Shown here: one piece after another, positions 14,656 through 40,905 of the stretch
Layout of the letters: every line of letters begins with the position of its first letter
How positions within the stretch are numbered: the first letter of the stretch is position 1
Assembly: GCA_947169825.1 (NCBI GenBank)
Contig: CAMVRE010000004.1
Location: forward strand, 1 to 47,609
Direction of reading: 5' to 3'
DNA length: 47,609 nt
Origin: an uncultured Verrucomicrobiota bacterium
Lineage (GTDB): Bacteria; Verrucomicrobiota; Kiritimatiellia; RFP12; UBA3636
The notes under the pieces: generated by a model
The model's input: only the letters and a program-made list of their open reading frames with translations
What the model was told of the DNA's origin: nothing
Databases searched by the model: none
Program-made: the position numbers and the translations under genes

Positions 14656-14704
14656 TGTGCAAGGCCGTCCTTCGACCGCCGTGGGCGGTTCTTTCGACCG
14701 ACCG

Positions 14705-14733
14705 AAAAATGTCGCCTGCCAGGCGACATTTTT
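14705..14733. promoter_or_regulatory. Perfect 14-bp palindrome upstream of ORF6N gene
   Basis: AAAAATGTCGCCTG and CAGGCGACATTTTT flank a single central C. The A-run and T-run at the ends fit a bidirectional rho-independent terminator when the centre forms a loop. A protein operator is the alternative. It is about 90 bp before the ORF6N start. Confidence 0.6.
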
Positions 14734-14824
14734 CCCGGGGCGCTGTGGCAGTCTACCCCCCGTTCCGCGGGAATACGCCCGCGAAACGCCACCACGCCAC
14801 CCCCGAACAGAAAGGACAATCGCA

Positions 14825-18473: not shown

Positions 18474-21400
18474 TTACAAGACGTTTTTGATCCTGATCAA
18501 AAACTCTTTTTGGGCTTCCGGTGAAAGCGAATTGAACTGGGCGACGAGGAGGTCGACGCCGAGCGTGTCGTTGTGCTTGGCGAGGGCCTTTTCAATCGGG
18601 GCGAGTTTTGAGGCATCCTTCGGATTGAAGCAAGGAATGCGCCGAGCGAGTTCATTTTGCGCGGCAAGGGTTTCTTGCGGATTCAGCGCCGAAGGATCTG
18701 CATATTTCTCAAGCATCCGCGCGACCCAGGCCTTCGACTCCCGGTTGCGCATCTTTTCACAAGCGGCAACGAGTTGATCGAAAGTTTCCTGAGGATCCCA
18801 CGGAGGTTCGATTTCCGCGAACTTCTCGACAAAGTCGACTCGCGCCCTTTCCACACGTTCTCGGAACGTATCTTCGCTCGTTTCCAAATTGGACAGGGAG
18901 CCGGAAAGGGCGATGTAGTCATTCACCTCAAGACGGGCGTCGCGGAAGTCCGCCTGGTTCGTCGGGCTGCCCTCATAGAGTTGAATGACAGCTTCGATCT
19001 CGTCCAGAATATCCCGCGCCGTTTCCATCGATAGAGCCAGACCGAAGATTCTGCCAGCCCGACGATCCAATGATTGCCGGGTCTTGACCAGTTCGTCCTT
19101 GATGCCGTTCAAGGTCCTGTAGACCACTGCGATTTCGTCCGCGATGCCGGGATTGACCGTCCTCATCGAGGAGGCGCTCCTTTGAAGAACCTCGCGGTGC
19201 TGCTCACATTCCGACTTCCACGTGTCAAGCTGCGCACAGGATAGGTTCTGCGGCACCGACGAATGGGACTCCGCCCAAGCCTCGGCATCACGTTTGCGGG
19301 CCCGTGCGGATGAGATTGCGTCAAGGTGTTGGAGAGCGCGAACAACCTTCTTTTTGAGTTGTTCCTCCTCGTTGAAGAGTTCTAGATTGCGGAGACTCCG
19401 TCCCATTCGTTCATTCGCAATCTGTTTGTATGCCGCAATCGCATCCGGGGTGTCCCCTTCGGGGTTGAACGACTGCAGCCAGGCGGGGAACCAGGCGACA
19501 ACCCGCTGCCGGCTCTCCCGCAGTTCCTTTTCCAGTGGGGCGATGTCCAACTCCTTGTCCCACAGGTAAGACAGGTTGTTTCGTGATTTCAAATCATCAG
19601 TAAGAAGTGATGCGCCATACGCCAACTGGTACGTATCACCCCTTTGCGTAGCAACCATAATGCGGCTCATGTGATCGCTGACAGTTTTATCGGCGGCATC
19701 CATTTGTCGCTTGGCGTCGGCAATTCCCCGTTCGACATCCTGAACCCTGAATTTCAACGTGGGCGGGATGGACGGATGCGTCGCACGGAGGGCGTCGATT
19801 CGGTCCTTGAATGCGAGTTTCTCGCGATAGGAAATGCAGTCGGGCCAATCGTCGACGATCGTCTTCCACGGCGAATCGTCCCCGGAGACCGCCTTGACGA
19901 ACCGAACATCCCGGAAGTCCTTGGGGTCGATGGATGTACGATCAGGGAAGAGGGAGTCGAGCACATCGACATCGACGGCGTCGCCGTCCTTCATCACCTG
20001 AATGTCCCTGGTGTTCCGATGCGCCCGGAAAAACACGGCGAGAAGAAGTCCTGCCGAGGCGATGTTCGCACCATAGGGAGCGGCGCAGGCTCGTTCGAGA
20101 GCATCCACGACGGAGAGCCCTTCGTCCGAGAAGAGCGCCTTGCTCCATTCCTCCAGCAGCGACTTCACGGAGGCCGTCGCGCGCCGACTGGAAACGACGC
20201 CGTCCGTCGTGAAGACGGACCAGGAATCCCGAAGAACCGTCTGGGCTCGGTTCCGCTTCTGAACCCCCATCGCCTGAGTCGCATCGAAGCTGAAGTCGGT
20301 CAGGAAGAGCATACGTGTCAACTCCGCGCAGTCCTTCGACGCCTGAGACACTCCGCCCTTCGTCGTGAAACCGTCGAACGGGAACGGGATGATCTTCGGG
20401 AACATCTTTTCGAACACGGCGTCGCCGAACGCGCGCAGGCGGCGCGGCGCTTCGTCGAGCGATACGCCGGCGAAGAGATGCCGCTCCCGGATCGCGTCCC
20501 CGAGGGCCTGTTCCAACAGTTCCGTCTGTCCGTTCCGCTGCGCGGGAACAAGACGGTCGAACTGCTCCTTCTCCCGGGCTCCCAGCGTTTCCAGGAGGTC
20601 AAGTTGCACAAGCGGCTCGGAAATGCGGTGGTCCTTGTCGAAAAGAAGGACGAGCATAAACGGGACTTTCGCGCATTGGGCGCGAAGCATCCGTTGCGCC
20701 TCGTCACGGACTGCGGCTTCGTCCTCGTCATCCGGGACGAAACAGTACACGACGAATCCGCGCTTGTCCGACACAGATTGGTACCGGCTCCGCTCACGAA
20801 GTTCCGCAGCCAGATTGGAGACCGAGAGCCGGAACAGCTCCCACGTCGTGAATCTTGGCTCGAAGTCCCACTCGCGGGTCTGGATCTTCCGTTCGTTCCC
20901 GAAACCGCACGACAGGTTCTCGTTGATCATCTGGAGCGCCGGCGCCCTTCCGAGGAAGAGCCTAGCCCTCCGACCTTCGTCGTACTCCTCCGCCTTCTTG
21001 CGAAGATAGAGGCGGAACTGGGCCTTGGATCCGGTGTCGGCGAAGATCTCGAACCGGCGGAAAGACTCCTCCCACGCGATGACGTTCTTCTCCTTTTCGA
21101 GTTCCTCGAGGCACTCCTCGGCCTCGGCACGGTCCAATCCGGAAAAGACGGCGACGGCGGAAACCATATCGTTCCTATCGATCGCACGAAGTTTCGTCTG
21201 CTCGATCAGGACGAGAGCCCGAAGAACGGCCGTCTCCCCGCCCGAGAAGTGCTGGGCGTTTCGTTCGAAGACCGCATCGTACGACTGCACGATGACGCCG
21301 GACCCGCCGGAGGAGTTTTCCATCTCGACGAATTCGTCGTGGAGCGCCGCCGTCCAAAGCGCGACGGGCGGCAATGACGGATGGACATCATCGAGAATGT

Positions 21401-22742
21401 CGTCCGCGTGCGCGACAAGCGCCTCCTTGAGAAGGGAGAGGGCCGAACGCTGCTGCAGAAACCGGCCGCTGGAGGAAAGGTAGTAGAGAACCCACATTGC
21501 CTCCGGCGAGAGAGGCCAGCAGCCGGCTGCGATCTTGGCGAAGGAATCGGCATCCGCCCACGAGGAAGCGTTCTTGGCGGACTCGTACCATCCAAGGAGC
21601 CGTTTCTGCGAAGCGTCGGAATCCTTCGACGCCAGCTTCGGCGCCTTCGATTTGACGAGAAGGCTCGCGACCAGCGTCTCGAGGTTGCTGGACAGATAGT
21701 ATTTCTCCGCGGAATCGTAGCGCGTCACATAGCGGTTCGCCTCGTTCTGCCGCAAGCTGGCGAGCCGTTGGAGATAGGCCTTCAGCTCGAACTGGACGAA
21801 ACCGACGAAGGCGATGCAATCCGAATGGGTCTGGACGCCTTCGAAGAGATGCTGTAGGGCGCCGTCGCCGGCGACCTGCGGCTTGTTGGCGGCGAACTCG
21901 AGATAGTGGCCGAATTCGTCGAATAGGATCAGCAGCCGTGCATACGGCTTCCCGGTGCCGATGTATTCGGAAGCGACCTTCCCGAGGACATCCTTGACCG
22001 TTTCGTCTCCAATGGTCTGGATCGGCATCCCGATGGTTCGGAAGAACGTCTGCGCGCGGTCGTAGAGGGACTCGTCGAAGGAGAGAAGTCTGGTGCGGCA
22101 TTCGTCAAGGGAAGGGGCGCCCGCGTCCTTCACGAACGCGGCGGACAGAGCCGGCGAGAGATTCCCGAGCATCGTCGCCGCGATCTGGAATCGCCGGCGA
22201 AGGGACTCCAACGGTTCGATGGAATGGCCGTCCGCCGAGATCCGCTCCTTGAGCTGCGCGAGCAGCACGGACGCAAGATCGGCGTTGTTCATTCCGTTCA
22301 CGGTGAGCACGAGGACCGGACCGCCGATTTCCCGAACGGCCTCCTCGATGCGGCCGGCGAGACCGACGTCGGCCTTGGCGATGTTCCCGACGATCTCTTT
22401 CGCGGTCTTTCCTTCCGTGCCGGAAAACAGTTCCGACAATGTCACCGCAAGGTGCGACTTGCCGCTGCCGTAGCTCGCGATCGCAAGCGTGAAGGGACGC
22501 GAACCCGGATTGGCCAGATCCTCGGCGACATCCGCCACGAACGAGGCGGTGTCGATCAGGCGGTGGCCCGTCCCCTCCGCGACGGACGACGCGACTCCGT
22601 GCGTTCCGGGACCGTGGAACACGAACGATACGGCCGCGCGGGCCGCCTTGCCGGGATCGCTTCGAAGCCAGTCGACATCGACCGCGCCGTTGAACAGGCG
22701 GTCGATCTCGAAGCGGACGAGGTTGCCAAGCGTTTCGTTCAT
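18474..22742 (-). CDS. Giant P-loop ATPase, second SspC-like/BrxC-like protein
   Basis: The start MNETLGNLVRFEIDRLF follows GAGGAA and overlaps the preceding stop as TGATG; the product has 1422 residues. Walker A is ASYGSGKS (89-96) and Walker B LLILFDEFGHYLEF (DEFG 275-278). The middle has helical and winged-helix-like parts; residues from about 1000 on are long, charged helices suggestive of coiled coil. The DEFG Walker B is shared with the SspC-like protein at 36413-39730. Like that protein it follows a DUF4007-type gene, so the pair is duplicated. It recalls BREX BrxC/PglY ATPases, but no PglZ or PglX is present. Probable role: energy-driven DNA handling in the modification or restriction complex. 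Confidence 0.8.
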   Translation of the reverse strand: MNETLGNLVRFEIDRLFNGAVDVDWLRSDPGKAARAAVSFVFHGPGTHGVASSVAEGTGHRLIDTASFVADVAEDLANPGSRPFTLAIASYGSGKSHLAVTLSELFSGTEGKTAKEIVGNIAKADVGLAGRIEEAVREIGGPVLVLTVNGMNNADLASVLLAQLKERISADGHSIEPLESLRRRFQIAATMLGNLSPALSAAFVKDAGAPSLDECRTRLLSFDESLYDRAQTFFRTIGMPIQTIGDETVKDVLGKVASEYIGTGKPYARLLILFDEFGHYLEFAANKPQVAGDGALQHLFEGVQTHSDCIAFVGFVQFELKAYLQRLASLRQNEANRYVTRYDSAEKYYLSSNLETLVASLLVKSKAPKLASKDSDASQKRLLGWYESAKNASSWADADSFAKIAAGCWPLSPEAMWVLYYLSSSGRFLQQRSALSLLKEALVAHADDILDDVHPSLPPVALWTAALHDEFVEMENSSGGSGVIVQSYDAVFERNAQHFSGGETAVLRALVLIEQTKLRAIDRNDMVSAVAVFSGLDRAEAEECLEELEKEKNVIAWEESFRRFEIFADTGSKAQFRLYLRKKAEEYDEGRRARLFLGRAPALQMINENLSCGFGNERKIQTREWDFEPRFTTWELFRLSVSNLAAELRERSRYQSVSDKRGFVVYCFVPDDEDEAAVRDEAQRMLRAQCAKVPFMLVLLFDKDHRISEPLVQLDLLETLGAREKEQFDRLVPAQRNGQTELLEQALGDAIRERHLFAGVSLDEAPRRLRAFGDAVFEKMFPKIIPFPFDGFTTKGGVSQASKDCAELTRMLFLTDFSFDATQAMGVQKRNRAQTVLRDSWSVFTTDGVVSSRRATASVKSLLEEWSKALFSDEGLSVVDALERACAAPYGANIASAGLLLAVFFRAHRNTRDIQVMKDGDAVDVDVLDSLFPDRTSIDPKDFRDVRFVKAVSGDDSPWKTIVDDWPDCISYREKLAFKDRIDALRATHPSIPPTLKFRVQDVERGIADAKRQMDAADKTVSDHMSRIMVATQRGDTYQLAYGASLLTDDLKSRNNLSYLWDKELDIAPLEKELRESRQRVVAWFPAWLQSFNPEGDTPDAIAAYKQIANERMGRSLRNLELFNEEEQLKKKVVRALQHLDAISSARARKRDAEAWAESHSSVPQNLSCAQLDTWKSECEQHREVLQRSASSMRTVNPGIADEIAVVYRTLNGIKDELVKTRQSLDRRAGRIFGLALSMETARDILDEIEAVIQLYEGSPTNQADFRDARLEVNDYIALSGSLSNLETSEDTFRERVERARVDFVEKFAEIEPPWDPQETFDQLVAACEKMRNRESKAWVARMLEKYADPSALNPQETLAAQNELARRIPCFNPKDASKLAPIEKALAKHNDTLGVDLLVAQFNSLSPEAQKEFLIRIKNVL

Positions 22743-23599
22743 CAGAGAAATTCCTCGTACAGGCGGTTCCAGAGGGGTGCGGACGGATGAAGGAATCGCA
22801 CGAGCCAGGGATGCATATGGCGGTCTACCTCGGCGAGACGCTTCCGTTCGAGAAGCTCGAGAACCTCCTGCGCCTCGGATTGCGACCAGCCCGTGATCCG
22901 ACGGAATCCGGCCTGGACCTCGAGCTCCTCGACCGAAACCTGGCCGTTCCCGCGTCCGGCCAGCTCCATGCACTCAGCGAGCCAAGCGGCGTATCCAACG
23001 GCATACTCCGGGCGAACCGGCGCGGATGCGCGGACGAGTTCTCCCTTCTCCCGGACGATGGCCCCGCAATCGGCGAACGACGCCTCGTCCGCATACATTC
23101 GGATCGTCGGGGAGACCGCCGTCTCCGGATCCTTGCCGCCGATCAGCGGCGAAATCCATTTCATCATATCGGCGACCGCGGCGCGGTTGCCGAATACGGG
23201 CGCGCTCTCGCAGAAGAGGTAGAACCAGGTGTCGGCCCCGCGCCACTCGTTGCAGAGACGGAGATGCGCCAGCCACTGCGTGAACGGCTCCTTGAAGAAC
23301 TTGTCCTCGAGGAACACGGTGCGCCCGAACGGCGTGAGCGAGAGCGTCGTATCGGCATCCTTCGCCGCCGGCTTCGCGAGCGACACGAGCCCCATCCCGC
23401 GGCAGTAGTCCGCCGTCGGGATCGACTTGCCGCTCGACGCGCCGGTCGGTATGCCGGTCGCCTCGGCAATTTTCCGGATTTCGTAGGCGCCGCCGTCCGC
23501 CGCGTATTTGAGCAGTTCGCCGAGATACTGCCGCTCCGGAATGAACGTCCGGTGGAAGTTCTTCGCGAGCCTGTCCGCCTTCTGTTTCTTCGCGGCCAT
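22742..23599 (-). CDS. Divergent DUF4007-like protein, partner of the giant ATPase
   Basis: The 285-residue basic-start protein (MAAKKQKADRLAKNFHRTF) aligns in pattern with the DUF4007 protein at 39727-40704: GKSIPTADYCRGMGLV against GKNMVESIKYWCLQTGLI, then LTPFGRTVFLEDKF and WLAHLRL against LGRFLF, DPFLED and WLLHYQM. DUF4007 is the family of SspB, the putative nickase of Ssp phosphorothioation systems. The FSGHQTF signature at the N-terminus is replaced by FHRTFIP, so it is a remote member. It starts 3 bp after the DptH-like stop and overlaps the ATPase start by one base. It may give target recognition or be a PT-sensing variant. Confidence 0.65.
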   Translation of the reverse strand: MAAKKQKADRLAKNFHRTFIPERQYLGELLKYAADGGAYEIRKIAEATGIPTGASSGKSIPTADYCRGMGLVSLAKPAAKDADTTLSLTPFGRTVFLEDKFFKEPFTQWLAHLRLCNEWRGADTWFYLFCESAPVFGNRAAVADMMKWISPLIGGKDPETAVSPTIRMYADEASFADCGAIVREKGELVRASAPVRPEYAVGYAAWLAECMELAGRGNGQVSVEELEVQAGFRRITGWSQSEAQEVLELLERKRLAEVDRHMHPWLVRFLHPSAPLWNRLYEEFL

Positions 23600-23602: not shown

Positions 23603-26600
23603 TCAGAATCCCCGCTCTTCTAGCGTGGAGACGTTGATGAGGTTGACCCTGCCCTTCAGGGAGTCTCCTTCCGCGGCAGGGCCGATGGAGATGCATTGGC
23701 CTTTCTCCAACGAAGAAAGACGCGCCTTCCACTCTTCCGCCGTTCCGGACTGCGCCGCCGTTCTCACAAGTTCGGAATAGCGCTTCAGCTCCGAATCCGC
23801 CGGCTTGAAGAACAGCTTGTGCGCCGCCTGGAACAGGCGGGCCTTCTCGTCGTCCTTCAGATTGCTCAGCGTCTGCGTCGCCGCGATGAGGCAGAGCCCG
23901 AACTTCCGTCCTTCCGTCAGGAACTTCCCGAGCGGAGAATCGAGCTTCTGGTCGAGGTTCTGCACCTCGTCGAGAACGACGACGTGCGGCTTCGTCTCGT
24001 CCCAGGCGGTCCGTGCCGTGGAATAGAGATCCCAAAGGACGAACTCGGTGAGCAGGAGGTATGTCGTGCGGTCGAGAATCGTCATCTGGAACACCTGGCA
24101 GAGGCGCTCCGTGTCGGCGAAGAGTTCGTCCCAGCCGATGGATTCGCCCTCCCTGAACAGTTTCGCCGCCACAAAGGGCTTGAGCTTGCTGATGACGGAT
24201 TTGAGCGCCGGCTGCTGATGGACGCCGTCGTCAAGAAACGCCTCGAGCGCGGGTATCAGATCGGACATCCCGAACGCGGGGTTCGAGGACATCCCCGTCT
24301 GGATGGCGTCGATGAGCACGCTGCGCTGCTGGTCGCCAAGGTTGTAGACGGAGTCGAAGATCGACGTGACGCGAGTCGCGACATCCCACTCGGATTCTTC
24401 CAGCGTTCCTCCGCAGCCGTCGTCGTCGGTCCCCTTCCGGAAGGGGTTGATGGGAAGCCCGTCCCTCCGCACGATGTGCTGGAGGGGGTCGACGGACCCC
24501 ACGAAGGCCGGTTTCAGCTGCTTGTTCAGGAACCCGTTCGTGTAATCGACGATCAGACTGTTCTGCGTCTTTCGCGCAAGCTCCGCCAGAATGGTCTGGA
24601 TCGCATAGGTCTTTCCCGTTCCGGAATTTCCGAAAATGAGGAAGTGCCGGTTGTTGAGCTTCGGATGGCCGAATTCCCAGTAGACCTCCTTCCCGGCCTT
24701 GGTCCTTCCGAGAAGGATCCGATCGGGAATGGAACGGGGAGTCGGTCCATCGGCCGGGGCCGGGGCATTGTTCGGAGCGACCGGTGCCGGAGCGACGGGC
24801 GAAGGTTCGACCGCCGGAGGCTCATCGACCGCCGTTTCCGGGACGGGTGCGGATGTCCGCGTCGGCGGCGCCGGCTCGTCCGGCTGTGGAACGGTCGGAA
24901 TCGGCACGCCGGTTCCGTCCTCTTCGGGCGCCGGCTCGGGCACCGGCTCGTCGTCTTCGTCGAAGTCGAAGTCCTGCCTCTCGCCCTCGTCCTCCTCGTC
25001 CGACTCGTCGTCCTCGTCGAGGAGACGGTCCTCGCGGATGCCGTAGTCCGGCGCGGCGGAGTCGCCGGCAAGGTCGATGGCGTCCTTCCAGACGAGCTTC
25101 GGCTTCGCGGCGGGCTGGCAGACGGCGTCGACGAAGGCGTATCCCGACTGGAAGACCGGGACGTCCAGCGTGTCTCCGTTCTCGTCCGAGTCGATCGTCA
25201 GGGTCTCGAACCGCTCCAGCGCGGGGCCGCGGGTCTCGTCCGTCACGAACGTGTAGACGGCCGCGTCCCATTCGATCTCGAACCTGCCGTCCGCGAGGTT
25301 CTCCATCGCGCGAAGGAAGGAGTCCTTGTCCGCCGACGACGGAGCGGCGCTCGCGATCATCCGATGAAGCTGCAGATGCCAGTAGCGCTGGTCCGGACGC
25401 GCGGCCGCGGGATCGTTCCACGAAGGCGCGAAAAGAGGCCGCAGGACGCGAAGTCCGTTCTCGATCTGGGTCTTCGCCTTTTCGAGGTGTCCGTCCATGT
25501 TCTGCGACTTGCCCATCTTGCATTCGATGAGGCTGGCGTGCAGCTTCAGGACGTCCCCCTCGATGTCGGCCCGGAGCCAGAGCAGGTCGGGATGGCGGTT
25601 GTCGTCCGCCGCAAGGTCGAACCAGTGCCGGTAGGCGTCGATCGAGAAGAGCCGATCACACAGATGGGACTCCGGGTCGAGCGGAACGATCCGGTGCAGG
25701 ATGCCGTAGGCCAGGAAGTCGCGGACGTATTCGCCCGGCCCGAGGGCCCGGACGAGCGAGAGGCCGGAAAGCTCCTTCGCCTCGTCCAGCAGCGTCTGCG
25801 CGATGCGCGCGTCCCGGTCGGGCGATCCGTAGGGGAACACGCCGCGCATCGCCGAGAGGAGCCGGTCCTTCAGCTCCCCGAGCCGGTACTGCTGGGTCGA
25901 GACGGTGTAATTGCTTTCCCCGTGCTGGCCGACGCCGGAGCCGAAGCCGATGAGCTCCCGCCTGCGTCCGGCGCCGCCATCGTCCGCCTGCGCGATGAGC
26001 GCCCGGTCGATGAGCGGATCGACCGCGACGACCCACTCGGCCGCCTCGTGCGCTGCGTCGACCACGTCTCGCCAGGGTGTGTAGTCGCCGGTCGCCAGCA
26101 CGATGTGCCGGTCTCCCGCGTGGACGCCGGGATCCCTCACGCGCGCGGAGAGGTTCGCGTGGGCGTCCGCCGTCGTGAACTGGCGGTTGCTGACGATCTG
26201 CGAACGGCGGAACCGCTCGTTCGGCTTCGTGCTGGCGCACTGCGACTGCTCGAGGATCGGGAACTTGATCGAGTTCTTGGTCACGACATACTTCTCCGCC
26301 TTCTCGAAGACGCATCCCTGGTTGTCTCGGCGGATGAAGTCGTAGAGGACGAACACGTCCGCGTCCACGTCGGAGCGGATGGTCTTCGCGAGCTGGCGGA
26401 CGCCGTCGGCGCTCGGCCCGACGACCCGGTGCGACACCGAGAGGTCGCAGTCCGCGTAGGGGCCCGACGCGTCCTCCTTCGACTCGACGTAGTCCTGCCA
26501 CGCGGAGAGCCACTGCGCGACGACGCTCGTGTCGGACGACTCGGAGAACACGGTCAGCCGGATCGAATACCGCTCGATCCGGTTCTCGGGCGGGATCTCC

Positions 26601-29026
26601 CGCTCGAGGAATCGGACGTAGGCGTCGATTCCCGCCAGGATGGGCTGGATGTCCTCGTTGCGGTACACCGCGAGCGAAAGGCCGTCCTTCGCACCGGCGT
26701 GGAGCCGGAAGAAGTCGCAGAGCGTCCGGCAGAGCAGGCGCGACTCGCTCGTTTCGCGAACCAGGTCCTCGTCGGCGATCTCGTCGTCGTCGACCTGGTT
26801 GTAGCGCGTGAGGAATCGCGTCGCCGCCAGCTCGGTTCCCGCCTGCGGCGAGCCGACCCGGAACACGAGCGCCGAGCCCGGGTCGGTCACGACGAACTTG
26901 CCGGACTCCGCGACCGGTAGGCCGACGATCGGCGCCTTGACCGCCGCCAGGTCCGAGTAGGCGGTCCACGCGCGGTCCTTGAAGGCCTTTGCGTTCCTGC
27001 GGCCGAACTCCATCTCGGCGGACCTCGCGAAGGCGTCGAGGAGGAACACCCACTGCGCCTGCAGCATTTCGACGAGGGCCGGGTGCAGGATCGTCACGAG
27101 GGCGGAGCCTTCGAATTTCTCGACGCCCCACGTGTTGATGTCCGCGCCGCCCCGCTCCGCGTCGACGAAGAGGAACGCGCGCATCAGCATCGCGCCCGCC
27201 TCCCGCGCGTTCGTCGCCCCGGCCGGGACGCCTTCGCCGCCGTAGGCGAACGCCTCGACCGCGTCCTGGTAGGCCTTGACGAACGGGATCGTCGCCTCCT
27301 GTCCGATGACGGCGTGGAGGCCCTTCGTCCGGCACTCGCGAAGGAACTCGCGGAACTTGTGCGAGAGATTGTCGAGCAGCCCGCGCATCGGCCGGGTGGC
27401 GGCGTTCGCGCGCCAGGCGGAGGTGAAGACGTTGGCGAGGAACGCGTCCTCGTCCAGCGCGCGGAGGGCCGCGTCGAGGACGCGGCTCGTCTCCTCCCCC
27501 TCGCGGGAAAGGAGCAGCTCCCGGTAGTAGGGCAGATGGAACACCGGGACGAGTCCGACCTCGTCCGGATGCGCCTCCATCGCGGCCTCCGTCCGGGCGA
27601 GCAGGTCGTCCGCCAGCCGGAAGGGGTGGATGTCCGGCAGCCGGAGCGCGAAACGCCGGCCGACCGGGGGCATCCCTTCGGGGCCGAACACCTCGACGCG
27701 GAACTCGAAGTACGGCTCGGACGCCTTCGCGGACTTGAACGAGAGTCCGGGCGACTCCGGGATGAGGTCGGAGGAGATCGCAACCTCCGCGTCGGAAATC
27801 TCGTCGTCGAGGCGGAGCCGGATGCGGCGCAGCATCTCGTCGAGGCCGCCGAGGAGCCGGCGGAGGCGCTCCCGGCACAGCTCCTCGATCTCGTCCGACG
27901 GCGCCTGCTCCGTCGCGTCGTGCCGGAACTGCACGCCCGTGAACGCCATCCGCTCCGGGATCGCGCCCGCGTACTCCCCCTTCTTCGTCCGCTCGACGAA
28001 TTCACCGAGCGTTCGCCAGGCCCCCAGGAGCAGGCCCTCGAGCGGCGAGCCGACGGGAAGCTTCTGCAGCGTGTCCTTCGGCTCCTTCTGCGTCTTTTCC
28101 TTCGACGGCTTCGCCTTGAGGATCAGGTCGTTGATCGCGAGGAAGTCGGCCCGGCGCAGATCGTCCAGCCGGGCGGTCTCGTGCGCTTCGATGTAGCCGC
28201 GCAGCGCCGCGAGAAGCTCCTCGCGCGAGGGGAATGGGGCCTCGTCCAGCGGCGGCGGCGGGTCCTTCCCCTCGAAATCGTCGATGGCCTTGAGCGCCTT
28301 CGTCCGGGCGGGTTCGTCCAGGAACGCGCCGTAGTTGAAGAAGGAGGTCGCCGCGTTCGCGTAGTAGCGGAATGTCCGCCGCCCGGGATTCCGGGCCTTC
28401 CTCGCGAAGGCGGAGAGATTCGGCTGGATGCCCCGCAGCAGCGCCTCCATCGCCTCCCGCTCGGATCCGATCCCCTCGTCCGCCGGGACGGAGCCGAGCA
28501 GGCGTGAGACATAGGGCAGGCTCGCGTCGTCGGCGAGGACGCCGAGGACGGAGTCCCACGCGTCCTTCCACTCCTTCGACGCCTCGATGCCGAACGTCCC
28601 GAGCCACTCCGAGACCCACGGCCGGAACGTCCCGCCCATCGTCTCCTCGAAGAGCGCGTCGGCGCCGCGGCGGTAGAAGTCCGCGAGGCTTCCGCGGTCC
28701 GCGGCGAGGTCGACGCCGAGCAGCACGACGAGCTGGCCGTCGGTTTCGTCGTTCCGGTATTGCGTGAGGTTGCCGTCGGCGAAATGCTCCTTGAGCGCCT
28801 CGACGTCTCCGGGCGTCCAGCCCGGGGCCGTCCGGCATTCGTTGGCGATGCGGAAGACGAGCGTGCGCGAAAAGGCGGCCGCGATGTCCTTGCAGTCGGC
28901 CAGGAGCAGGGCCGTGTCGGGGCCGGAAAGCCCGGGAACCATGAAGAGGAGGCGGCTGTTGTCCGCGGCCGACTTGCACTGGCTCCGGATGCTGCCGGAG
29001 AGCGTGCCGACATAGAGGTTCTTCAT
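23603..29026 (-). CDS. dptH: DptH/SspH-like restriction protein: HerA-type ATPase with candidate PD-(D/E)xK motif
   Basis: The ATG giving MKNLYVGTLSGSIRSQ overlaps the DptG-like stop (ATGA) and has AAAGGA upstream; the product has 1807 residues. The C-terminal ATPase domain starts with VYWEFGHPKLNNRHFLIFGNSGTGKT (Walker A at about 1466); Walker B is HVVVLDEVQNLD (about 1686), typical of DptH and HerA/FtsK translocases. Before it, HPDLLWL (Asp1147) and LIECKMG (Glu1168, Lys1170) resemble a PD-(D/E)xK nuclease core. A 100-residue acidic then proline-rich linker (about 1336-1432) joins the two. It should act with the DptF- and DptG-like proteins to damage unmodified DNA. Confidence 0.82.
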   Translation of the reverse strand: MKNLYVGTLSGSIRSQCKSAADNSRLLFMVPGLSGPDTALLLADCKDIAAAFSRTLVFRIANECRTAPGWTPGDVEALKEHFADGNLTQYRNDETDGQLVVLLGVDLAADRGSLADFYRRGADALFEETMGGTFRPWVSEWLGTFGIEASKEWKDAWDSVLGVLADDASLPYVSRLLGSVPADEGIGSEREAMEALLRGIQPNLSAFARKARNPGRRTFRYYANAATSFFNYGAFLDEPARTKALKAIDDFEGKDPPPPLDEAPFPSREELLAALRGYIEAHETARLDDLRRADFLAINDLILKAKPSKEKTQKEPKDTLQKLPVGSPLEGLLLGAWRTLGEFVERTKKGEYAGAIPERMAFTGVQFRHDATEQAPSDEIEELCRERLRRLLGGLDEMLRRIRLRLDDEISDAEVAISSDLIPESPGLSFKSAKASEPYFEFRVEVFGPEGMPPVGRRFALRLPDIHPFRLADDLLARTEAAMEAHPDEVGLVPVFHLPYYRELLLSREGEETSRVLDAALRALDEDAFLANVFTSAWRANAATRPMRGLLDNLSHKFREFLRECRTKGLHAVIGQEATIPFVKAYQDAVEAFAYGGEGVPAGATNAREAGAMLMRAFLFVDAERGGADINTWGVEKFEGSALVTILHPALVEMLQAQWVFLLDAFARSAEMEFGRRNAKAFKDRAWTAYSDLAAVKAPIVGLPVAESGKFVVTDPGSALVFRVGSPQAGTELAATRFLTRYNQVDDDEIADEDLVRETSESRLLCRTLCDFFRLHAGAKDGLSLAVYRNEDIQPILAGIDAYVRFLEREIPPENRIERYSIRLTVFSESSDTSVVAQWLSAWQDYVESKEDASGPYADCDLSVSHRVVGPSADGVRQLAKTIRSDVDADVFVLYDFIRRDNQGCVFEKAEKYVVTKNSIKFPILEQSQCASTKPNERFRRSQIVSNRQFTTADAHANLSARVRDPGVHAGDRHIVLATGDYTPWRDVVDAAHEAAEWVVAVDPLIDRALIAQADDGGAGRRRELIGFGSGVGQHGESNYTVSTQQYRLGELKDRLLSAMRGVFPYGSPDRDARIAQTLLDEAKELSGLSLVRALGPGEYVRDFLAYGILHRIVPLDPESHLCDRLFSIDAYRHWFDLAADDNRHPDLLWLRADIEGDVLKLHASLIECKMGKSQNMDGHLEKAKTQIENGLRVLRPLFAPSWNDPAAARPDQRYWHLQLHRMIASAAPSSADKDSFLRAMENLADGRFEIEWDAAVYTFVTDETRGPALERFETLTIDSDENGDTLDVPVFQSGYAFVDAVCQPAAKPKLVWKDAIDLAGDSAAPDYGIREDRLLDEDDESDEEDEGERQDFDFDEDDEPVPEPAPEEDGTGVPIPTVPQPDEPAPPTRTSAPVPETAVDEPPAVEPSPVAPAPVAPNNAPAPADGPTPRSIPDRILLGRTKAGKEVYWEFGHPKLNNRHFLIFGNSGTGKTYAIQTILAELARKTQNSLIVDYTNGFLNKQLKPAFVGSVDPLQHIVRRDGLPINPFRKGTDDDGCGGTLEESEWDVATRVTSIFDSVYNLGDQQRSVLIDAIQTGMSSNPAFGMSDLIPALEAFLDDGVHQQPALKSVISKLKPFVAAKLFREGESIGWDELFADTERLCQVFQMTILDRTTYLLLTEFVLWDLYSTARTAWDETKPHVVVLDEVQNLDQKLDSPLGKFLTEGRKFGLCLIAATQTLSNLKDDEKARLFQAAHKLFFKPADSELKRYSELVRTAAQSGTAEEWKARLSSLEKGQCISIGPAAEGDSLKGRVNLINVSTLEERGF

Positions 29027-30666
29027 TGGGCGGTCCTTTCTTCGGGCGCGAAGGGGTTGCGGACGAGGGAGCAGGCGTCGGAGAGCCGCACGAGCATCCC
29101 GGACGCCTCGAGCATCCGTTCGAGCCAGGCGTCGCCCGACTCCTCGCCCGCGAGCTCGTCGATCCGGCCCGACCAGTTGCGCGAGTCGGCCAGGCCCTTG
29201 AGGTCGAACACGAAGCCGTGGTGCGCCTTCATCCGCGCCTTGAACGTGTCGAGAGTCATCCGGCGCCCCGGCACGAGCGAAAGCACCAGGCACCGCAGGA
29301 TCTTCTCGTTGAGCGTGAACTTCATCGCGCCGCCGCGCGGCGGCACGATCAGCCCGATGCTCTTCCCGAGCTTGCGGAAGAGCTTGAAGCCGTACTTGTC
29401 CGCTTCCCCGTAGATGGACCGGAATCGGGTTGGAGAACCCGCGGCCGCCTCGCGAACCTTCTCCAGCAGGTCGGGCCGGCGCACCACCTGCTGGATTTCG
29501 CGGCTGATCTCCGAGAGGGACTGTTCCGAGAACGATTTCAGCTTCCGCTCCCCGCTCGCGGTGTCGCAAAGCAGGATGCGGTAGTCGGACCCGTCGGAGG
29601 GGCCGCCCGCCGTCGTCGTCTCGCGGTAGGTCTGCGAGGCGAGCGTGCGAAGAACCTGCAGCGCGCACTCGACTTCCAGCAGCTCGAGCTTGTCGATGAT
29701 CCCGATGTTCGCCGCGAGGATTCGGTTGAGCTCGACCGCGAAGAGATACCCCTCCGTCCAGCTTTTCTGCGGGATCCATCCGCAGGAGACGCTTCTCGGG
29801 TCTCCCCCGGGGAAGTCGGAAGCCCTTTGCGTCTCCTCGTCGGTCGACGTGTCGATGAACCGGATGACGTCCGCAAGCCCCTTCGGCGTCGCGTCGAAGA
29901 AGGCGTCGATGGCCTTCGAAAGTCCGTCCCTCAAAACGACGGGGTTCGCTTCGTCTGCGGTGAGGTCGACGCCGGGTCGCGAGCCGATTCCGCTCTCGAC
30001 CTCTTCTTTCGTCTGGGTCAGCGCATTGCAGATTTGAAGATAGAGCGACTCGCCGCTTCTGGCAAGAAATCGGTGTTTGCTTGAATCAAAGAGAGTGGAG
30101 AAGTTTTCCAGAACTTCTCCCCAGTCTGTCGGATCGACAGACCGCGCCTCGGTTGTGTTCCAGATCTCTTCGCCGCAGAGCAGTTCCCGGCAAAAGGGAA
30201 GGAAAGTCTGGGCACACCAGGTCCGGCTGGCGCCGTTGCCCCAGAATCCCAGAAACAGAGCGCTCAAGGTCTTGAGGAAGGCGCTCTTCTCCGCCGGCGT
30301 ATCGAGGTCGAGACCGTCGGCGAGGTCTTTCCAAAGCCGTTCCGCGTGCTTGCGATGGCTGCGGTGGCGGGTGTCCAACCGGGAAGATTCCAGGAAGGCG
30401 AAGAGCTTGAGGTTCAATCGCGCCTTCGGGAAGTAGGAGAGTCCGGCCGGTTTTGTACGCCAGTCACGGAGCGTCGCATCGTTCGGAAAGACCGTCGAAA
30501 ATTGGTCATTGTATAACTGCTTTCCAGACGCGCAGACAAGAAGAAACTCGGCCAGCATATCCATCGTCTGCTGGTCTTCTGAGAACCGCCGTCCGAAAAG
30601 ACGGATGGCGGGATTAGAATCCTCGCTGCTTTGCGGTTGGTAGATTTCAGAGGGGAAACTAATCAT
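29023..30666 (-). CDS. dptG: DptG/SspG-like protein of the restriction module
   Basis: The 547-residue protein shows no P-loop, nuclease or membrane motif; it is mixed alpha/beta with a helical C-terminus. Its place between the DptF-like and DptH-like genes, with overlaps on both sides (8 bp and ATGA), is the position of DptG/SspG, whose products are also poorly characterised and required for restriction. I assign it mainly by synteny. The N-terminal third is clearly AT-richer than the rest, so the gene looks mosaic. A structural adaptor linking the two ATPases is the most likely role. Confidence 0.6.
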   Translation of the reverse strand: MISFPSEIYQPQSSEDSNPAIRLFGRRFSEDQQTMDMLAEFLLVCASGKQLYNDQFSTVFPNDATLRDWRTKPAGLSYFPKARLNLKLFAFLESSRLDTRHRSHRKHAERLWKDLADGLDLDTPAEKSAFLKTLSALFLGFWGNGASRTWCAQTFLPFCRELLCGEEIWNTTEARSVDPTDWGEVLENFSTLFDSSKHRFLARSGESLYLQICNALTQTKEEVESGIGSRPGVDLTADEANPVVLRDGLSKAIDAFFDATPKGLADVIRFIDTSTDEETQRASDFPGGDPRSVSCGWIPQKSWTEGYLFAVELNRILAANIGIIDKLELLEVECALQVLRTLASQTYRETTTAGGPSDGSDYRILLCDTASGERKLKSFSEQSLSEISREIQQVVRRPDLLEKVREAAAGSPTRFRSIYGEADKYGFKLFRKLGKSIGLIVPPRGGAMKFTLNEKILRCLVLSLVPGRRMTLDTFKARMKAHHGFVFDLKGLADSRNWSGRIDELAGEESGDAWLERMLEASGMLVRLSDACSLVRNPFAPEERTAQ

Positions 30667-32890
30667 TGATCACCTCCAGTGCGTTCGCGCCGTCGCTCGG
30701 CTTGACGGAAACGGTGGAAAGGCTCCCGTCCGTCTGTCGTCGTAGCAGGACAAGGCCCTGCACGTCTCCCGAACGGATGGTCGCCAGGATTCGCGCCTTC
30801 AGGTCTTCGAGCCGGTCGCGGTAGGAGCGTTGCAGTCCGCGCCCCAGCTCTCCCTTGTTCCGCGCCGTCAGGTAGTCGAGGAACGGAAGCGGAAGATCCA
30901 GCCGGATGCCGTCCAGCCTTCCGATGCCGCAGAGCGCAGGCGTTCCGTCGACGAGCCGGATCTCGAAGTGGTCGTGGAAATCGAACTTCGAGAGGACCAG
31001 CTGGACGCTCTGGCGGATGTCGCCGCCGCGCCGGCCCAGGGTGATGTAGAGCGTTCCCGCCTTGCCCGTTCCCTCCGGCGGACGCATCCCGGAGAACTCT
31101 TCCTGCAGGACGCAGTAGATCGGAACGGCGAGGATCCTGGCCTTGAAGCTCGAAGGATCGTCCCGCCATCCCTGGACGTCGAGGATCCGGGGGGAGTCCA
31201 GGAACGCCGAAAGGAACGCGGGGAAGCCGTCGTCCCCCTCGGGGGCGGGCGAGCCGAGGAAGAAGGCGAGCCGCCTGTATTGCCGGCGCGCCAGGGCGGC
31301 GTCCCGGCCGGGGAGCGCCGCCTTCTTTCCGCCGCGGATCCGCCTTTCCAGGTCGGCGAGCGTCGCGTCCGTCTCCGCAAGCGGGGTGTGGCCTCCGAAG
31401 TTCCAGAACGCGCGCTCCTCGCGGGGCGAGTAGCGCGCGTCGAAGCGCTGCTCCCGCATCGCGGACACGGCGTGGAGCTGTCGCACCGCCTGCGGAATGT
31501 CCTTCTCGCCGTCGTCGCCCCAGAAAAGGTTCGTGAAGAGGTGTCTTTCGGGACGGATCTCCGCGCCGGAGGCGACACGCGCCGCCATCTCGCGGCAGGT
31601 CGCGCCGCCCGTGAGGAGGAAGGAGAAATGGGCGGCCATCTGCCGCATCGTGAGCCGCTCGCCGTAGGCGTAGGCGCGGAAGTAGAGCAGCCGGATGCGC
31701 CGGGATGCGAGGGCGAAGTGGCGTTCGAGGAGGTTGCGGTTCGCTAGCAGCGGGCAGCGGCCCGAGGCGGGGCATTCGCCGCATCGGTCCCATTGCGGCG
31801 AACGGACCATCCGTTCGAGCATCCGCAGCCCGATGTCGAGGTTGTCCTTCCGGGCGAGGTTGTGGACGGCGAAGGAGACGTGGCCGAACGGGAACGTGCG
31901 CCGGACGTCGGAATCCATCGCGCCGAGCAGACGGTCCTCGACGGTTGCGACGTTCTCCCCTGCCCGGCCGCAGTTGCTCTGGAAGAGGGAGAGGAGAGGC
32001 CCGGTGTTCGAGACGATCAGGAACCGCTCGCCCGACCCCGGCCGGAACAGGTCGTCGGCGAGCTTCCCGCGCTCGTCCTCCTTGCATTCGCTCAGATCCT
32101 TGACGACCGAAACGGTCCTTTCCCCGCAGGAGATGATCTCGCGCTTCTTCAGTCCGTCCTTGAGGGGATCGTCCGGGGGAAGCTTGCGCAGGGCCCGGAT
32201 CACCTCCAGCGCGAGGGTCGACTTGCCGTCGCCCGCGTGTCCCGTGAGGATGACGTTTCCTCCGTTTTCGCCGGTCAGTTCGGCGAGAATCTCTTGGGCG
32301 AGAGGATGGGGGACGCGAAGCTCCTTGAAAAGCGGGTTCTTGGCCTGCGATTCGGCAAGAGACCCCTTGTTGTTCGCGTCGGTTCCTTGAAGGGTGTTGA
32401 GGTAGGCGACAAATGGGTTTTCCATTTGCGATCCTCCGTTTGTTTGATGAGACGAAAGACGTTGTTCGGCGATCCGTTGGAAGGCAAGATTGAGTTCGCG
32501 GTCGTTGCGCATATCATACAGCACCCCTTCAAGAAGGGCACCCTTGACGAGCCTGTTCAGGTCGCCGGGCCCACCAATGGTCGTAGCTGCTTCAAGCGCT
32601 TGCTCCTGCCCTTCGTTGGGAATTAAACTCCACACGCCGGATGTGCGTAGATGGAAAAAGGGATTGTAGGGGCGGTTTCTATCACCATCTGCCCTAAACC
32701 GATCAAATAGGGTTTTGAACTCGTTGACAAGTTCCGGGCAGTAATAAACTATGGGGTCTTCAAGTTCTCCCCTGTAGCGAAGGCGAGCCCAGGCGAGAAG
32801 CAACAGCAACTTATGCGGCTTGTGCTGCGTTCCGGAAGGAAGCAACGAGTCTACAAGCTCTTCGATTTTCGCTTGGTTCTCGGGGGTCAT
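30659..32890 (-). CDS. dptF: DptF/SspF-like ATPase with N-terminal sulfur-binding-like domain
   Basis: The full ORF has 743 residues and starts with ATGA overlap on the cysteine desulfurase stop. Residues 1-150 (KPHKLLLLLAWARLRYRG; RPYNPFFHLRTSGVW) have the pattern of the SBD of PT-dependent HNH enzymes such as ScoMcrA: KPHKxLLL, then a PFxxLRxxGxW core. Residues from 156 form a DptF-like P-loop protein: ENPFVAYLNTL, Walker A GHAGDGKST (about 217-225), LIVSNTGPLLSLF and a Cys cluster CGECPASGRC (Cys370, 373, 379). An internal GGAGG and ATG at 32425 could give a 588-residue DptF alone. It would couple PT recognition to restriction. Confidence 0.78.
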   Translation of the reverse strand: MTPENQAKIEELVDSLLPSGTQHKPHKLLLLLAWARLRYRGELEDPIVYYCPELVNEFKTLFDRFRADGDRNRPYNPFFHLRTSGVWSLIPNEGQEQALEAATTIGGPGDLNRLVKGALLEGVLYDMRNDRELNLAFQRIAEQRLSSHQTNGGSQMENPFVAYLNTLQGTDANNKGSLAESQAKNPLFKELRVPHPLAQEILAELTGENGGNVILTGHAGDGKSTLALEVIRALRKLPPDDPLKDGLKKREIISCGERTVSVVKDLSECKEDERGKLADDLFRPGSGERFLIVSNTGPLLSLFQSNCGRAGENVATVEDRLLGAMDSDVRRTFPFGHVSFAVHNLARKDNLDIGLRMLERMVRSPQWDRCGECPASGRCPLLANRNLLERHFALASRRIRLLYFRAYAYGERLTMRQMAAHFSFLLTGGATCREMAARVASGAEIRPERHLFTNLFWGDDGEKDIPQAVRQLHAVSAMREQRFDARYSPREERAFWNFGGHTPLAETDATLADLERRIRGGKKAALPGRDAALARRQYRRLAFFLGSPAPEGDDGFPAFLSAFLDSPRILDVQGWRDDPSSFKARILAVPIYCVLQEEFSGMRPPEGTGKAGTLYITLGRRGGDIRQSVQLVLSKFDFHDHFEIRLVDGTPALCGIGRLDGIRLDLPLPFLDYLTARNKGELGRGLQRSYRDRLEDLKARILATIRSGDVQGLVLLRRQTDGSLSTVSVKPSDGANALEVIND
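32423..32437 (-). promoter_or_regulatory. Internal ribosome binding site and ATG inside the DptF-like gene
   Basis: The minus strand reads GGAGG, 7 nt, ATG (Met156), exactly where the SBD-like part ends and the DptF-like part (MENPFVAYLNTL) begins. It is the best Shine-Dalgarno match in the whole operon. Confidence 0.65.
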
Positions 32891-34047
32891 TTTAAGGCGT
32901 CCTTTGCGGCACGGAGAGCATTAAGAAACGATTGGAGTTCCGTCTCCAAGGTTGACACCGAAGTTGAAACACGAATGCAGTTACGAGCCTTGTCCCTGGA
33001 AAGTCCCATCGCTTGAAGCACGTAAGAAGGATCGATGGCTCCCGTGTTACAAGCCGAACCATTGCTCACACAGAAAAGGGGCAGACTGTCCATTAGAATA
33101 TCCGATGGCACTCCCGGGATGAAAAGATTCGTCGTGTTCGGCAACCGCTCCGCGCCCGCGCCGTTCACTCGGCTGCCCGGAATGGCAACGAGCGCGGCGG
33201 TTTCGAAAGCGTCGCGCATCGCCTTCATCCGGGCAAGGGCGGATGCGTCGGGCAGAAGCTCCATCGCCCTGCCGAGACCGACGATGCCGGGCACGTTGTG
33301 CGTCCCGGGACGGACGCCGCACTCCTGTCCGCCGCCCGCGAGCGGCATCGGGAACGGGAAGCGGTTCGCGCCGGCGCGCAGGAAGAGGAACCCGGCGCCC
33401 TTCGGGCCGTGGATCTTGTGGGCGCTGAACGCGGCGGAGTCCACGCCGAGGTCCGCAAGGGAGAACGGCATCTTGCCGAGCGCCTGCACGGCGTCGCAGT
33501 GGAAGAAGGCGCCGGCCTCGTGCGCCAGTTCCGCCAGTTCGCGGACGGGCTGGACGACGCCGGTCTCGTTGTTCGCGAGCTGCACGGAGACGAGGCCCGT
33601 TCCGGGCCGGATCGCCTCGCGCGCGGCGGCAAGGTCCACCACGCCGTCCTGCGTCACGGGAAGCAGCGCGACCTCGAACCCGAAGGACTCGAGCCGCCTG
33701 GCGGCGTTGAGGACGGACTTGTGCTCGATGGCGGACACCGCCACGCGCCGCGCCGCGGACTTCGAATCGGCGAACGCCTGGAAGATCCAGTTGTTCCCCT
33801 CCGTCGCGCCCGAGGTGAAGAAAACCTGACCGGGGTCGGCGCCGAGGGCGCCCGAGACGGCCGCGCGGGCGGACTCCACCGCACGGCGGGCGAGCCGGCC
33901 CGCGAAGTGTGCGCTCTCGGCGTTGCCGAACGCGGCGCCCCAATACGGCTCCATCGCCGCGACGACCTCCGGGGCGCAGGCGGTGGTCGCGTTGTTGTCG
34001 AGGTAGACGAGGCCCTCGGGAATCCTCACAGATGGCACATCAGACAC
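32887..34047 (-). CDS. sspA: Cysteine desulfurase, SspA/DndA-like
   Basis: No in-frame ATG is near the N-terminus. I choose the GTG (VSDVPSVRIPEGLVYLDNNATT) after GGGAG, giving 386 residues; the longer tracked N-terminus overlaps the SspD-like gene. Fold type I PLP enzyme features are present: TSGATEGNNW, ANNETGVVQP, HCDAVQ, SAHKIHGPKG (PLP Lys211) and CVSNGSACNTG with the catalytic Cys333. It takes sulfur from cysteine and passes it as persulfide to the SspD-like protein for DNA backbone sulfuration. The start overlaps sspD by 22 bp and the stop overlaps dptF as ATGA, so it is dedicated to this operon rather than housekeeping IscS. Confidence 0.93.
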   Translation of the reverse strand: MSDVPSVRIPEGLVYLDNNATTACAPEVVAAMEPYWGAAFGNAESAHFAGRLARRAVESARAAVSGALGADPGQVFFTSGATEGNNWIFQAFADSKSAARRVAVSAIEHKSVLNAARRLESFGFEVALLPVTQDGVVDLAAAREAIRPGTGLVSVQLANNETGVVQPVRELAELAHEAGAFFHCDAVQALGKMPFSLADLGVDSAAFSAHKIHGPKGAGFLFLRAGANRFPFPMPLAGGGQECGVRPGTHNVPGIVGLGRAMELLPDASALARMKAMRDAFETAALVAIPGSRVNGAGAERLPNTTNLFIPGVPSDILMDSLPLFCVSNGSACNTGAIDPSYVLQAMGLSRDKARNCIRVSTSVSTLETELQSFLNALRAAKDALK

Positions 34048-40704: not shown

Positions 40705-40766
40705 GGTGGGAATCAGGGGCGACACGTTCCCCCGGGGATAGACCCGGTGTGTCGCGAACGAGCCGT

Positions 40767-40796
40767 AGTATACCCGAAAGCCGCTCTTGTTTCCAA
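40767..40796 (-). promoter_or_regulatory. Main promoter of the phosphorothioation/restriction operon
   Basis: On the minus strand TTGGAA, 18 bp and TATACT. It lies in the 200-bp gap between the KAP gene stop and the DUF4007 start and could drive the genes from 40704 to 17273. Confidence 0.6.
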
Positions 40797-40905
40797 CCAA
40801 AATTCTCGCAACTGCCGCCATCTTCAGTTCTCTGTGATGTCGCTGCGGAAGACCGCCGAATGCGTTGATCGGAAGAGATTCCAGAAAGGGCGTCGGAATG
40901 CTTGG

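What the first reader, a model, noticed from the sequence alone, without database searches (positions are those of the whole stretch)
18474..23599. Second, divergent DUF4007-like/DEFG-ATPase pair at the end of the operon
The 285-residue protein matches the DUF4007 pattern of the operon's first gene (GKxxxxxxYCxxxGL, then LxxxGRxxF and WLxH). Its neighbour shares the YGSGKS and DEFG motifs with the SspC-like ATPase. Hence an SspB-SspC pair is duplicated at both ends of the operon, with the second pair much larger and more diverged. It may be an effector built from modification parts.
Basis: partly seen in the sequence, partly recalled or inferred. Interest (0 to 1): 0.72.

Follow-up and report, generated by a model that had tools for sequence, protein, structure and literature searches.

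The report
Effector-side ATPase pair in sulfur-DNA defence
At the end of a bacterial anti-virus operon that marks its own DNA with sulfur sits a second DNA-scanning protein pair which is not a copy of the marking pair but a distant relative shared with another defence system (BREX), and it probably helps the attack half of the system, so marking and attacking may each have their own scanner.

Summary
Observation confirmed, interpretation half right. Both are homologous to the operon's SspB and SspC: hhalign E=1.8e-4 and 1.4e-11. They are not a duplication made within this operon. A tree puts the ATPase with the second ATPase of 'two-pair' type-4 BREX loci (Thermomicrobium roseum, Pseudanabaena galeata; support 100/99), outside SspC.

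The operon is an SspABCD-SspFGH phosphorothioation (PT) system with three linked changes: the second pair, a PT-reader (sulfur-binding domain) fused to SspF, and a HerA/DndH-type motor on the nuclease SspH. All three recur in five further genomes of the phylum; a sixth keeps the pair and SspH. Canonical SspFGH operons lack all three.

Two sister Pseudanabaena plasmids share writer genes but swap a DUF4007-2/ATPase-2/PglZ/BrxL cassette for SspFGH, which places the pair on the effector side. The second ATPase is broken in three of six relatives while the SspFGH genes present stay open.

Best reading: a second scanner/loader that serves restriction, not modification. Function is inferred; nothing was tested at the bench.

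The parts
22742..23599 (-). Second DUF4007 protein (DUF4007-2, 285 aa), effector-side DNA-binding partner; lacks the RDxDC block invariant in the SspBs compared
   Evidence: PF13182 E=2.1e-6; hhalign v SspB E=1.8e-4; orthologues 41-73% identical; best outgroup is the Pseudanabaena second DUF4007, E=1e-14
18474..22742 (-). Second Orc/Cdc6/BrxC-like AAA+ ATPase (ATPase-2, called X2; 1,422 aa, ATG at 22742)
   Evidence: PADLOC SspC partial match E=2.2e-16; hhalign v SspC E=1.4e-11; clade with the second ATPase of two-pair type-4 BREX
22455..22475 (-). Walker A of ATPase-2, SYGSGKS followed by H (residues 90-97, K95)
   Evidence: KSH is shared with BrxC proteins and not with SspC of Ssp operons
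21909..21935 (-). Walker B of ATPase-2, LLILFDEFG (residues 270-278)
23603..29026 (-). SspH (1,807 aa): PD-(D/E)XK-type nuclease motif plus C-terminal HerA/DndH-type translocase
   Evidence: PADLOC DndH 5.7e-51 (C-terminus) and SspH 2.1e-19; alignment
25517..25594 (-). PD...ECK nuclease-like motif of SspH (D1147, E1168, K1170)
   Evidence: D and ExK conserved in 7 relatives with the pair and 3 canonical SspH; motif reading, no profile hit
23843..24727 (-). HerA-type translocase domain of SspH (residues 1434-1728), in place of the FtsK domain of canonical SspH
   Evidence: canonical SspH of G041 has FtsK_SpoIIIE 2.4e-38
29023..30666 (-). SspG (547 aa)
   Evidence: PADLOC SspG 1.6e-18
30659..32890 (-). 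SspF (743 aa), P-loop NTPase with an added N-terminal sulfur-binding domain
   Evidence: PADLOC SspF 4.2e-27
32504..32875 (-). Sulfur-binding domain (PT-DNA reader) at the N-terminus of SspF (residues 6-129)
   Evidence: PDB 8h0l SBDHga1 E=2.2e-12; NF045808 E=3.3e-7; present in relatives with the pair, absent from canonical SspF
32887..34200 (-). SspA-like cysteine desulfurase (ORF bounds; the real start is probably further in)
   Evidence: DndA model 3.2e-93, NifS 2.5e-107, both below the curated cut-offs
34026..34859 (-). SspD PAPS-reductase-like sulfurtransferase (start approximate)
   Evidence: PADLOC SspD 6.7e-112
36413..39730 (-). SspC, writer ATPase (1,105 aa)
   Evidence: PADLOC SspC 6e-271
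39727..40821 (-). SspB, writer DUF4007 protein (ORF bounds; DUF4007 begins at residue 68)
   Evidence: PF13182 1.2e-76; PADLOC SspB 2.5e-75; profile hits the solved SspB 6juf/6lb9, 1.7e-51

Best explanation
The locus is an SspABCD-SspFGH phosphorothioate defence operon of a distinct subtype. SspB and SspC (with SspA and SspD) write PT marks. The second pair (DUF4007-2 + ATPase-2) belongs to the restriction half. DUF4007-2 is a SspB/BrxA-like DNA-binding protein and ATPase-2 a BrxC-like Orc/Cdc6 ring ATPase. Together they most likely sit on or scan DNA and recruit or load SspF-SspG-SspH. SspF reads PT through its added sulfur-binding domain, and SspH (HerA motor plus PD-(D/E)XK motif) pulls and cuts DNA that lacks the mark. 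Shown here: gene content, homology, lineage, linkage of the three features, and a cassette swap in sister plasmids. Inferred: the complex, the scanning and loading role, and PT-dependent control.
For: (1) ATPase-2 clades with the second ATPase of type-4 BREX loci, where it lies beside PglZ and BrxL and not with the writer. (2) Two Pseudanabaena plasmids share the writer block (83.5% over 7,035 bp) and the cysteine-desulfurase/ParA flank (93.9% over 2,791 bp); between them DUF4007-2/small gene/ATPase-2/PglZ/BrxL in one is SspF/G/H (plus DUF262 and kinase genes) in the other. (3) Canonical SspBCD-FGH operons have no second pair (G041, G382, G461; Sphingomonas plasmid), and such a set writes PT (PMC8092258), so the pair is not needed for writing. 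(4) The second pair goes with the SspF sulfur-binding domain and the HerA-type SspH. (5) ATPase-2 is broken in G292 (two IS copies, each with a 9-bp target duplication), G463 (TAA) and G030 (TAG), while SspF, G and H where present are open. (6) SspFGH is toxic without PT in a published system (PMC8092258); G292 (IS in sspB) and G030 (no sspD in the genome) have damaged writers and a broken ATPase-2, as expected if ATPase-2 is needed for attack.
Against: No biochemical or genetic test. In the cassette-swap sister plasmid the pair is tied to PglZ/BrxL, not to SspFGH. In type-1 BREX, BrxC is also needed for modification (PMC12839542), so a double role is possible. G030 also lacks SspF and SspG. 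The broken genes come from three genomes, two of them MAGs, and G292 has an IS in sspB too, so its whole operon may be decaying. AlphaFold models were too poor to check the fold. The sulfur-binding domain of SspF was not found by profile in G463 and is seen there only by alignment.
Confidence: 0.6

Rival explanations
1. Second writer: DUF4007-2 and ATPase-2 form a second modification complex that shares SspD and SspA but recognises another sequence, so the operon writes PT at two motifs.
For: Both proteins are homologues of the writer pair. DNA-binding proteins of this class may set target specificity (PMC10853773). Only one SspD-type sulfurtransferase is needed.
Against: The pair is never beside SspD in the loci compared; it follows SspH, or precedes PglZ/BrxL. 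In sister plasmids it moves with the effector cassette. DUF4007-2 lacks the RDxDC block invariant in the SspBs compared. G030 keeps the pair although its genome has no SspD.
Confidence: 0.15
2. Restraint: the pair keeps SspFGH off the host's own DNA, like an immunity or licensing factor, and is not part of the attack.
For: SspFGH is toxic without PT (PMC8092258), only part of the sites carry PT (PMC11931770), and a second scanner could check marks.
Against: ATPase-2 is broken in G463 and G292 while SspF, G and H stay open; loss of a restraint should be selected against. Canonical SspFGH operates without it.
Confidence: 0.12
3. Recent tandem-type duplication of SspBC at both ends of this operon.
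For: Same protein order and the same two families.
Against: The tree puts ATPase-2 with the BREX second ATPases, far from SspC, AU p=0.0006; identity to SspC is only about 26%. The split predates the species compared.
Confidence: 0.03
4. A separate HerA-capture type defence unit merged into the operon: DUF4007-2 + Orc/Cdc6 ATPase-2 + the HerA half of SspH act on replicating or entering DNA regardless of PT.
For: HerA + Orc/Cdc6 + triple-wHTH associations are a known theme (PMC10853773, PMC12839542). The HerA domain and the pair occur together here.
Against: HerA is one polypeptide with the SspH region. The SspF of the same operons gained a PT reader, which points to PT-dependent control.
Confidence: 0.1

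Closest known systems
SspABCD-SspFGH PT defence system (Wang et al. 2021, PMC8092258)
   Same: SspB, SspC, SspD, SspA, SspF, SspG and SspH all present in one operon
   Different: Extra DUF4007-2/ATPase-2 pair; SspF carries an N-terminal sulfur-binding domain; SspH has a HerA/DndH-type motor in place of FtsK
Type-4 BREX with two DUF4007-ATPase pairs (T. roseum NC_011961, P. galeata pPg_05)
   Same: SspB/SspC/SspD-type writer plus a second DUF4007/ATPase pair; the second ATPases form one clade; T. roseum SspC also groups with the SspCs of operons that have the pair
   Different: Effectors there are PglZ and BrxL, with a small protein between DUF4007-2 and ATPase-2; here SspFGH, and no PglZ, BrxL or small gene
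Canonical BREX core (BrxA-BrxB-BrxC-PglZ-BrxL)
   Same: DUF4007 proteins are described as BrxA-like DNA binders (PMC12839542); ATPase-2 has the BrxC-like GKSH Walker A
   Different: Deep relation to BrxC types 1 and 4 unresolved in the tree; no PglZ or BrxL
HerA/FtsK capture systems and BREX-related capture (BRC) systems (PMC10853773, PMC12839542)
   Same: HerA translocase next to an Orc/Cdc6 ATPase and a DUF4007-type wHTH protein
   Different: Those are described with PglZ, TGT, GNAT or free REases; here the module is built into an SspABCD-FGH operon

Membership tests
SspABCD PT-modification module | SspB, SspC, SspD and cysteine desulfurase in one operon | tested here: met
   PADLOC SspB 2.5e-75, SspC 6e-271, SspD 6.7e-112; desulfurase PF00266 2.1e-65
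SspABCD PT-modification module | PT in the genomic DNA | not testable with these tools
   needs LC-MS/MS or PT sequencing
SspFGH restriction module | SspF, SspG and SspH homologues | tested here: met
   PADLOC 4.2e-27, 1.6e-18, 2.1e-19
SspFGH restriction module | FtsK/SpoIIIE-type C-terminus of SspH | tested here: not met
   HerA/TrwB/DndH-type here; FtsK in canonical G041
SspB (for DUF4007-2) | Full-length DUF4007 match and the residues invariant in the SspBs compared (RDxDC) | tested here: not met
   PF13182 27.5 bits v cut-off 27, profile 63-136 of 288; RDxDC absent
SspC (for ATPase-2) | Lies within the SspC clade and matches an SspC model over its length | tested here: not met
   partial model match 2.2e-16; outside SspC in the trees
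BrxC (for ATPase-2) | BrxC model match or BrxC clade | tested here: inconclusive
   PADLOC BrxC 0.0045; GKSH motif as in BrxC; deep branching unresolved
Type-4 BREX | PglZ and BrxL in the operon | tested here: not met
   no such hit among the operon genes
HerA/FtsK capture system | HerA + Orc/Cdc6 ATPase + triple-wHTH protein + REase in one operon | tested here: inconclusive
   HerA, ATPase and DUF4007-2 present; REase only as a motif inside SspH; triple-wHTH fold of DUF4007-2 not confirmed

The most novel reading that the evidence does not exclude
PT immunity comes in a two-scanner architecture: one DUF4007-Orc/Cdc6 motor for writing and a separate, exchangeable one that licenses nucleases. 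The second module pairs with PglZ/BrxL in some lineages and with SspFGH (PT reader fused to SspF) in others. It is a hitherto unnamed core component of both type-4 BREX variants and an Ssp subtype, and current defence-gene libraries miss it.
Probability: 0.4. Interest if true: 0.72.

Novelty: new variant of a known kind. Interest (0 to 1): 0.55.

Why it matters
How PT systems tell self from non-self when only a fraction of sites is marked is an open question. This subtype ties a PT-reading domain directly to the SspF effector and adds a second scanning motor on the effector side, so writing and reading could be separated genetically in one operon. The second ATPase of the BREX examples has no match in PADLOC or Pfam, so BREX-4 loci with two pairs may be annotated incompletely. 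The cassette swap between sister plasmids offers a ready-made test of which genes write and which attack.

Tried and rejected
Recent duplication within the operon: rejected by tree and motifs. ATPase-2 as a plain SspC or DUF4007-2 as a plain SspB: model coverage, motif and clade not met. A solved-structure relative of DUF4007-2 or ATPase-2 by sequence: none. AlphaFold of DUF4007-2 and of the first 530 residues of ATPase-2: pLDDT 33-34, pTM 0.22-0.23, not used; only the window and the one search for related loci locus (L001, one row each) were allowed in the alignment, so no fold search was run. Phage and viral collections: no relative. The BrxP family search was unspecific for single-domain PAPS reductases (313 of 388 genomes); only the matches over most of the 779-position model were used, to find true BREX-4 loci. 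The Abditibacteriota and G089/G260 MTase-BREX ATPases looked like members of the second-ATPase family by BLAST but fall in a separate clade (AU p=0.0001). The BREX-4 preprint on gut bacteria (PMC12914056) is not held and could not be read. Searches failed on a wrong SspD coordinate, on an 'of' handle, on a search term.

Full report
What is there. The window is a whole 47.6-kb contig (G000:C4) of a MAG. Its nearest relative in the genome collection, with 73% identical ATPase-2, is an uncultured Verrucomicrobia bacterium; the matching contig, of the same length, is G124:C100 of the same genus. On the minus strand an operon runs from about 40.8 kb to 18.5 kb: sspB, sspC, a Schlafen-AlbA_2/wHTH gene, sspD, sspA, sspF, sspG, sspH, DUF4007-2, ATPase-2. 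ATPase-2 starts at ATG 22742, overlapping the DUF4007-2 stop as ATGA.

Is the homology real? Yes, but remote. DUF4007-2 scores 27.5 bits against PF13182 (cut-off 27) over a quarter of the model. BLASTP against SspB gives 1e-4. Four-row profiles give E=1.8e-4 over 229 columns; hhalign's probability is only 49%. For the ATPases BLASTP gives 0.003, the best SspC model 2.2e-16, and profile-profile 1.4e-11 over 727 columns. The invariant RDxDC block of the SspBs compared is missing from DUF4007-2, which has its own invariant residues, among them Y169, D171-E172-A173 and C178-G179. The ATPase motifs are intact.

Not a local duplication. A tree of the N-terminal 620 residues puts the window's ATPase-2 and its orthologues together with the second ATPase of Thermomicrobium roseum, Pseudanabaena galeata and Annamia (100/99), apart from 17 SspC-type proteins. 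With BREX type-1, type-4 and MTase-BREX ATPases added, this clade holds at 99/100, and joining the window type with SspC without the BREX members is rejected (AU p=0.0006); the deeper order is unresolved. ATPase-2 shares the Walker A form YGxGKSH with BrxC proteins, while SspCs of Ssp operons have a residue other than His after GK[ST]. A profile of DUF4007-2 finds the Pseudanabaena second DUF4007 first, at 1e-14. In T. roseum and P. galeata the first pair is SspB/SspC-like and lies with the PAPS reductase, and the second pair lies with PglZ and BrxL. PADLOC's BrxC model PDLC02478 matches the first T. roseum ATPase end to end (2,632 bits), and nothing in PADLOC or Pfam recognises the second.

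How widespread. In Verrucomicrobiota samples the second pair was found in G000, G018, G030, G055, G124, G292 and G463, always directly after SspH. The full order sspB-C-D-A-F-G-H-pair holds in G018, G055, G463 and G292; G124 shows D onwards because its contig ends. In one even draw of 388 genomes, 13 had a full SspB-type DUF4007 and five of those had the second pair. SspBCD-FGH without the pair occurs in G041, G382 and G461 and on a Sphingomonas plasmid. G030 keeps SspB, SspC, SspH and the pair, but KilA-N, methyltransferase-HNH and S24 genes stand where D, A, F and G should be, and its genome has no SspD.

Three linked features. SspF of the window has an N-terminal sulfur-binding domain: PDB 8h0l, E=2.2e-12, and NF045808, 3.3e-7. 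It is found by profile in G018, G055 and G124 and seen by alignment in G292 and, more diverged, in G463. The three canonical SspFs checked start directly at the NTPase domain. SspH has a HerA/TrwB/DndH-type C-terminus, whereas the canonical G041 SspH has FtsK_SpoIIIE. Just before it all ten SspHs share a D...ExK motif, PDLLW...IECK in the window, which reads as a PD-(D/E)XK nuclease (motif only).

Which side does the pair serve? Two Pseudanabaena plasmids give a natural experiment. P. galeata pPg_05 and ABRG5-3 plasmid b match at 83.5% over 7,035 bp across the writer genes and at 93.9% over 2,791 bp across cysteine desulfurase and parA. Between these blocks the first has DUF4007-2, a small gene, ATPase-2, PglZ and BrxL, and the second has SspF, G, H, a DUF262 gene and a kinase. 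So the second pair moves with the effector cassette. A caveat: sspD of ABRG5-3 is read in two frames, so its writer may be dead. That a SspBCD-type writer needs no second pair is independently known, since Vibrio anguillarum IscS-SspBCD writes PT and works with SspFGH (PMC8092258).

Gene decay agrees. ATPase-2 carries two IS copies in G292, each with a 9-bp target duplication (ACAGCCGCA; GCTGTCCAT), plus a frameshift in its DUF4007-2; an in-frame TAA in G463; and a TAG in G030. All other operon genes covered there are open, except sspB of G292, which has an IS in its 3' part. SspFGH is toxic without PT (PMC8092258). G292 and G030 have damaged writers, so breaking ATPase-2 could be how they were disarmed. 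The numbers are small and this is a hint, not a proof.

Mechanism proposed. Writer: SspA, B, C and D. Reader/effector: DUF4007-2 binds DNA, ATPase-2 forms a ring and scans or loads, SspF senses PT through its sulfur-binding domain and NTPase, and SspH pulls and cuts unmarked DNA. Shown: parts, lineage, linkage, swap. Inferred: every physical and regulatory step. In type-1 BREX, BrxC is also needed for modification (PMC12839542), so a double role cannot be excluded.

Comparison with the literature. HerA-Orc/Cdc6-wHTH associations and BREX-related capture systems are described (PMC10853773, PMC12839542), and type-4 BREX is described with one BrxC and one DUF4007 (PMC12839542; brxPCZL in PMC11931770). 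In the held library no paper contains both SspFGH and DUF4007, and a search for SspF with 'sulfur-binding domain' gave only one paper holding both terms, with two and one mentions (that paper was not read). The annual reviews and the BREX-4 preprint could not be read, so priority is not certain.

Verdict. A real, conserved, so far unnamed subtype of Ssp defence with an effector-side pair shared with a type-4 BREX variant. New variant of a known kind; interest 0.55.

Noticed in passing
   Followed up: yes
window 34844-36292 (-): A Schlafen AlbA_2 + HATPase_c_4 + wHTH gene sits between sspC and sspD; it is not at this place in G018, G055 or G463. Possibly a regulator or a defence insert.
   Followed up: partly
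window 17273-18433 (-): HAD-family protein matching PADLOC candidate PDC-S34 (E=7.6e-151) starts 40 bp after ATPase-2; not found downstream of the pair in G018 or G055.
   Followed up: partly
window 40906-42453 (-): KAP-family P-loop NTPase directly upstream of sspB (PF07693 6.1e-37).
   Followed up: no
window 5079-8324, 11161-14487 and 43285-44340 (-): Related proteins of 1,081, 1,108 and 351 aa; the two long ones share an N-terminal segment and DADGDGL-type repeats. Unknown role.
   Followed up: no
window 14441-15784 (+): ORF whose sequence looks like an ORF6N/KilA-type phage protein (from reading, not tested).
   Followed up: no
L014 (G030:C77) 11158-14291: KilA-N (PDC-S22), methyltransferase-HNH and S24-peptidase-like genes replace sspD, sspA, sspF and sspG between SspC and SspH; the genome has no SspD. 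What SspB/SspC do there is unexplained.
   Followed up: partly
L099 (Pseudanabaena sp. ABRG5-3) 7459-8245: sspD-like PAPS reductase is read in two frames and is not annotated: probable pseudogene in a plasmid that keeps SspFGH.
   Followed up: no
L091 (Abditibacteriota plasmid) 1733-14383; L034 and L035: Adenine-methyltransferase BREX-type loci whose BrxA-like slot is a DUF4007 protein, with a distinct BrxC clade; L091 also has a small P-loop protein between DUF4007 and the ATPase.
   Followed up: partly
L031 6088-7456 and 7927-9295; L032 near 6694-8009: Two copies of one IS element inside ATPase-2 of G292 (9-bp target duplications) and a further transposase insertion inside the 3' part of sspB.
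   Followed up: yes
L015/L016 (G055) and L017 (G124): Assembly breaks fall inside ATPase-2 in both genomes (127-bp overlap in G055); could reflect strain variation at this gene.
   Followed up: no
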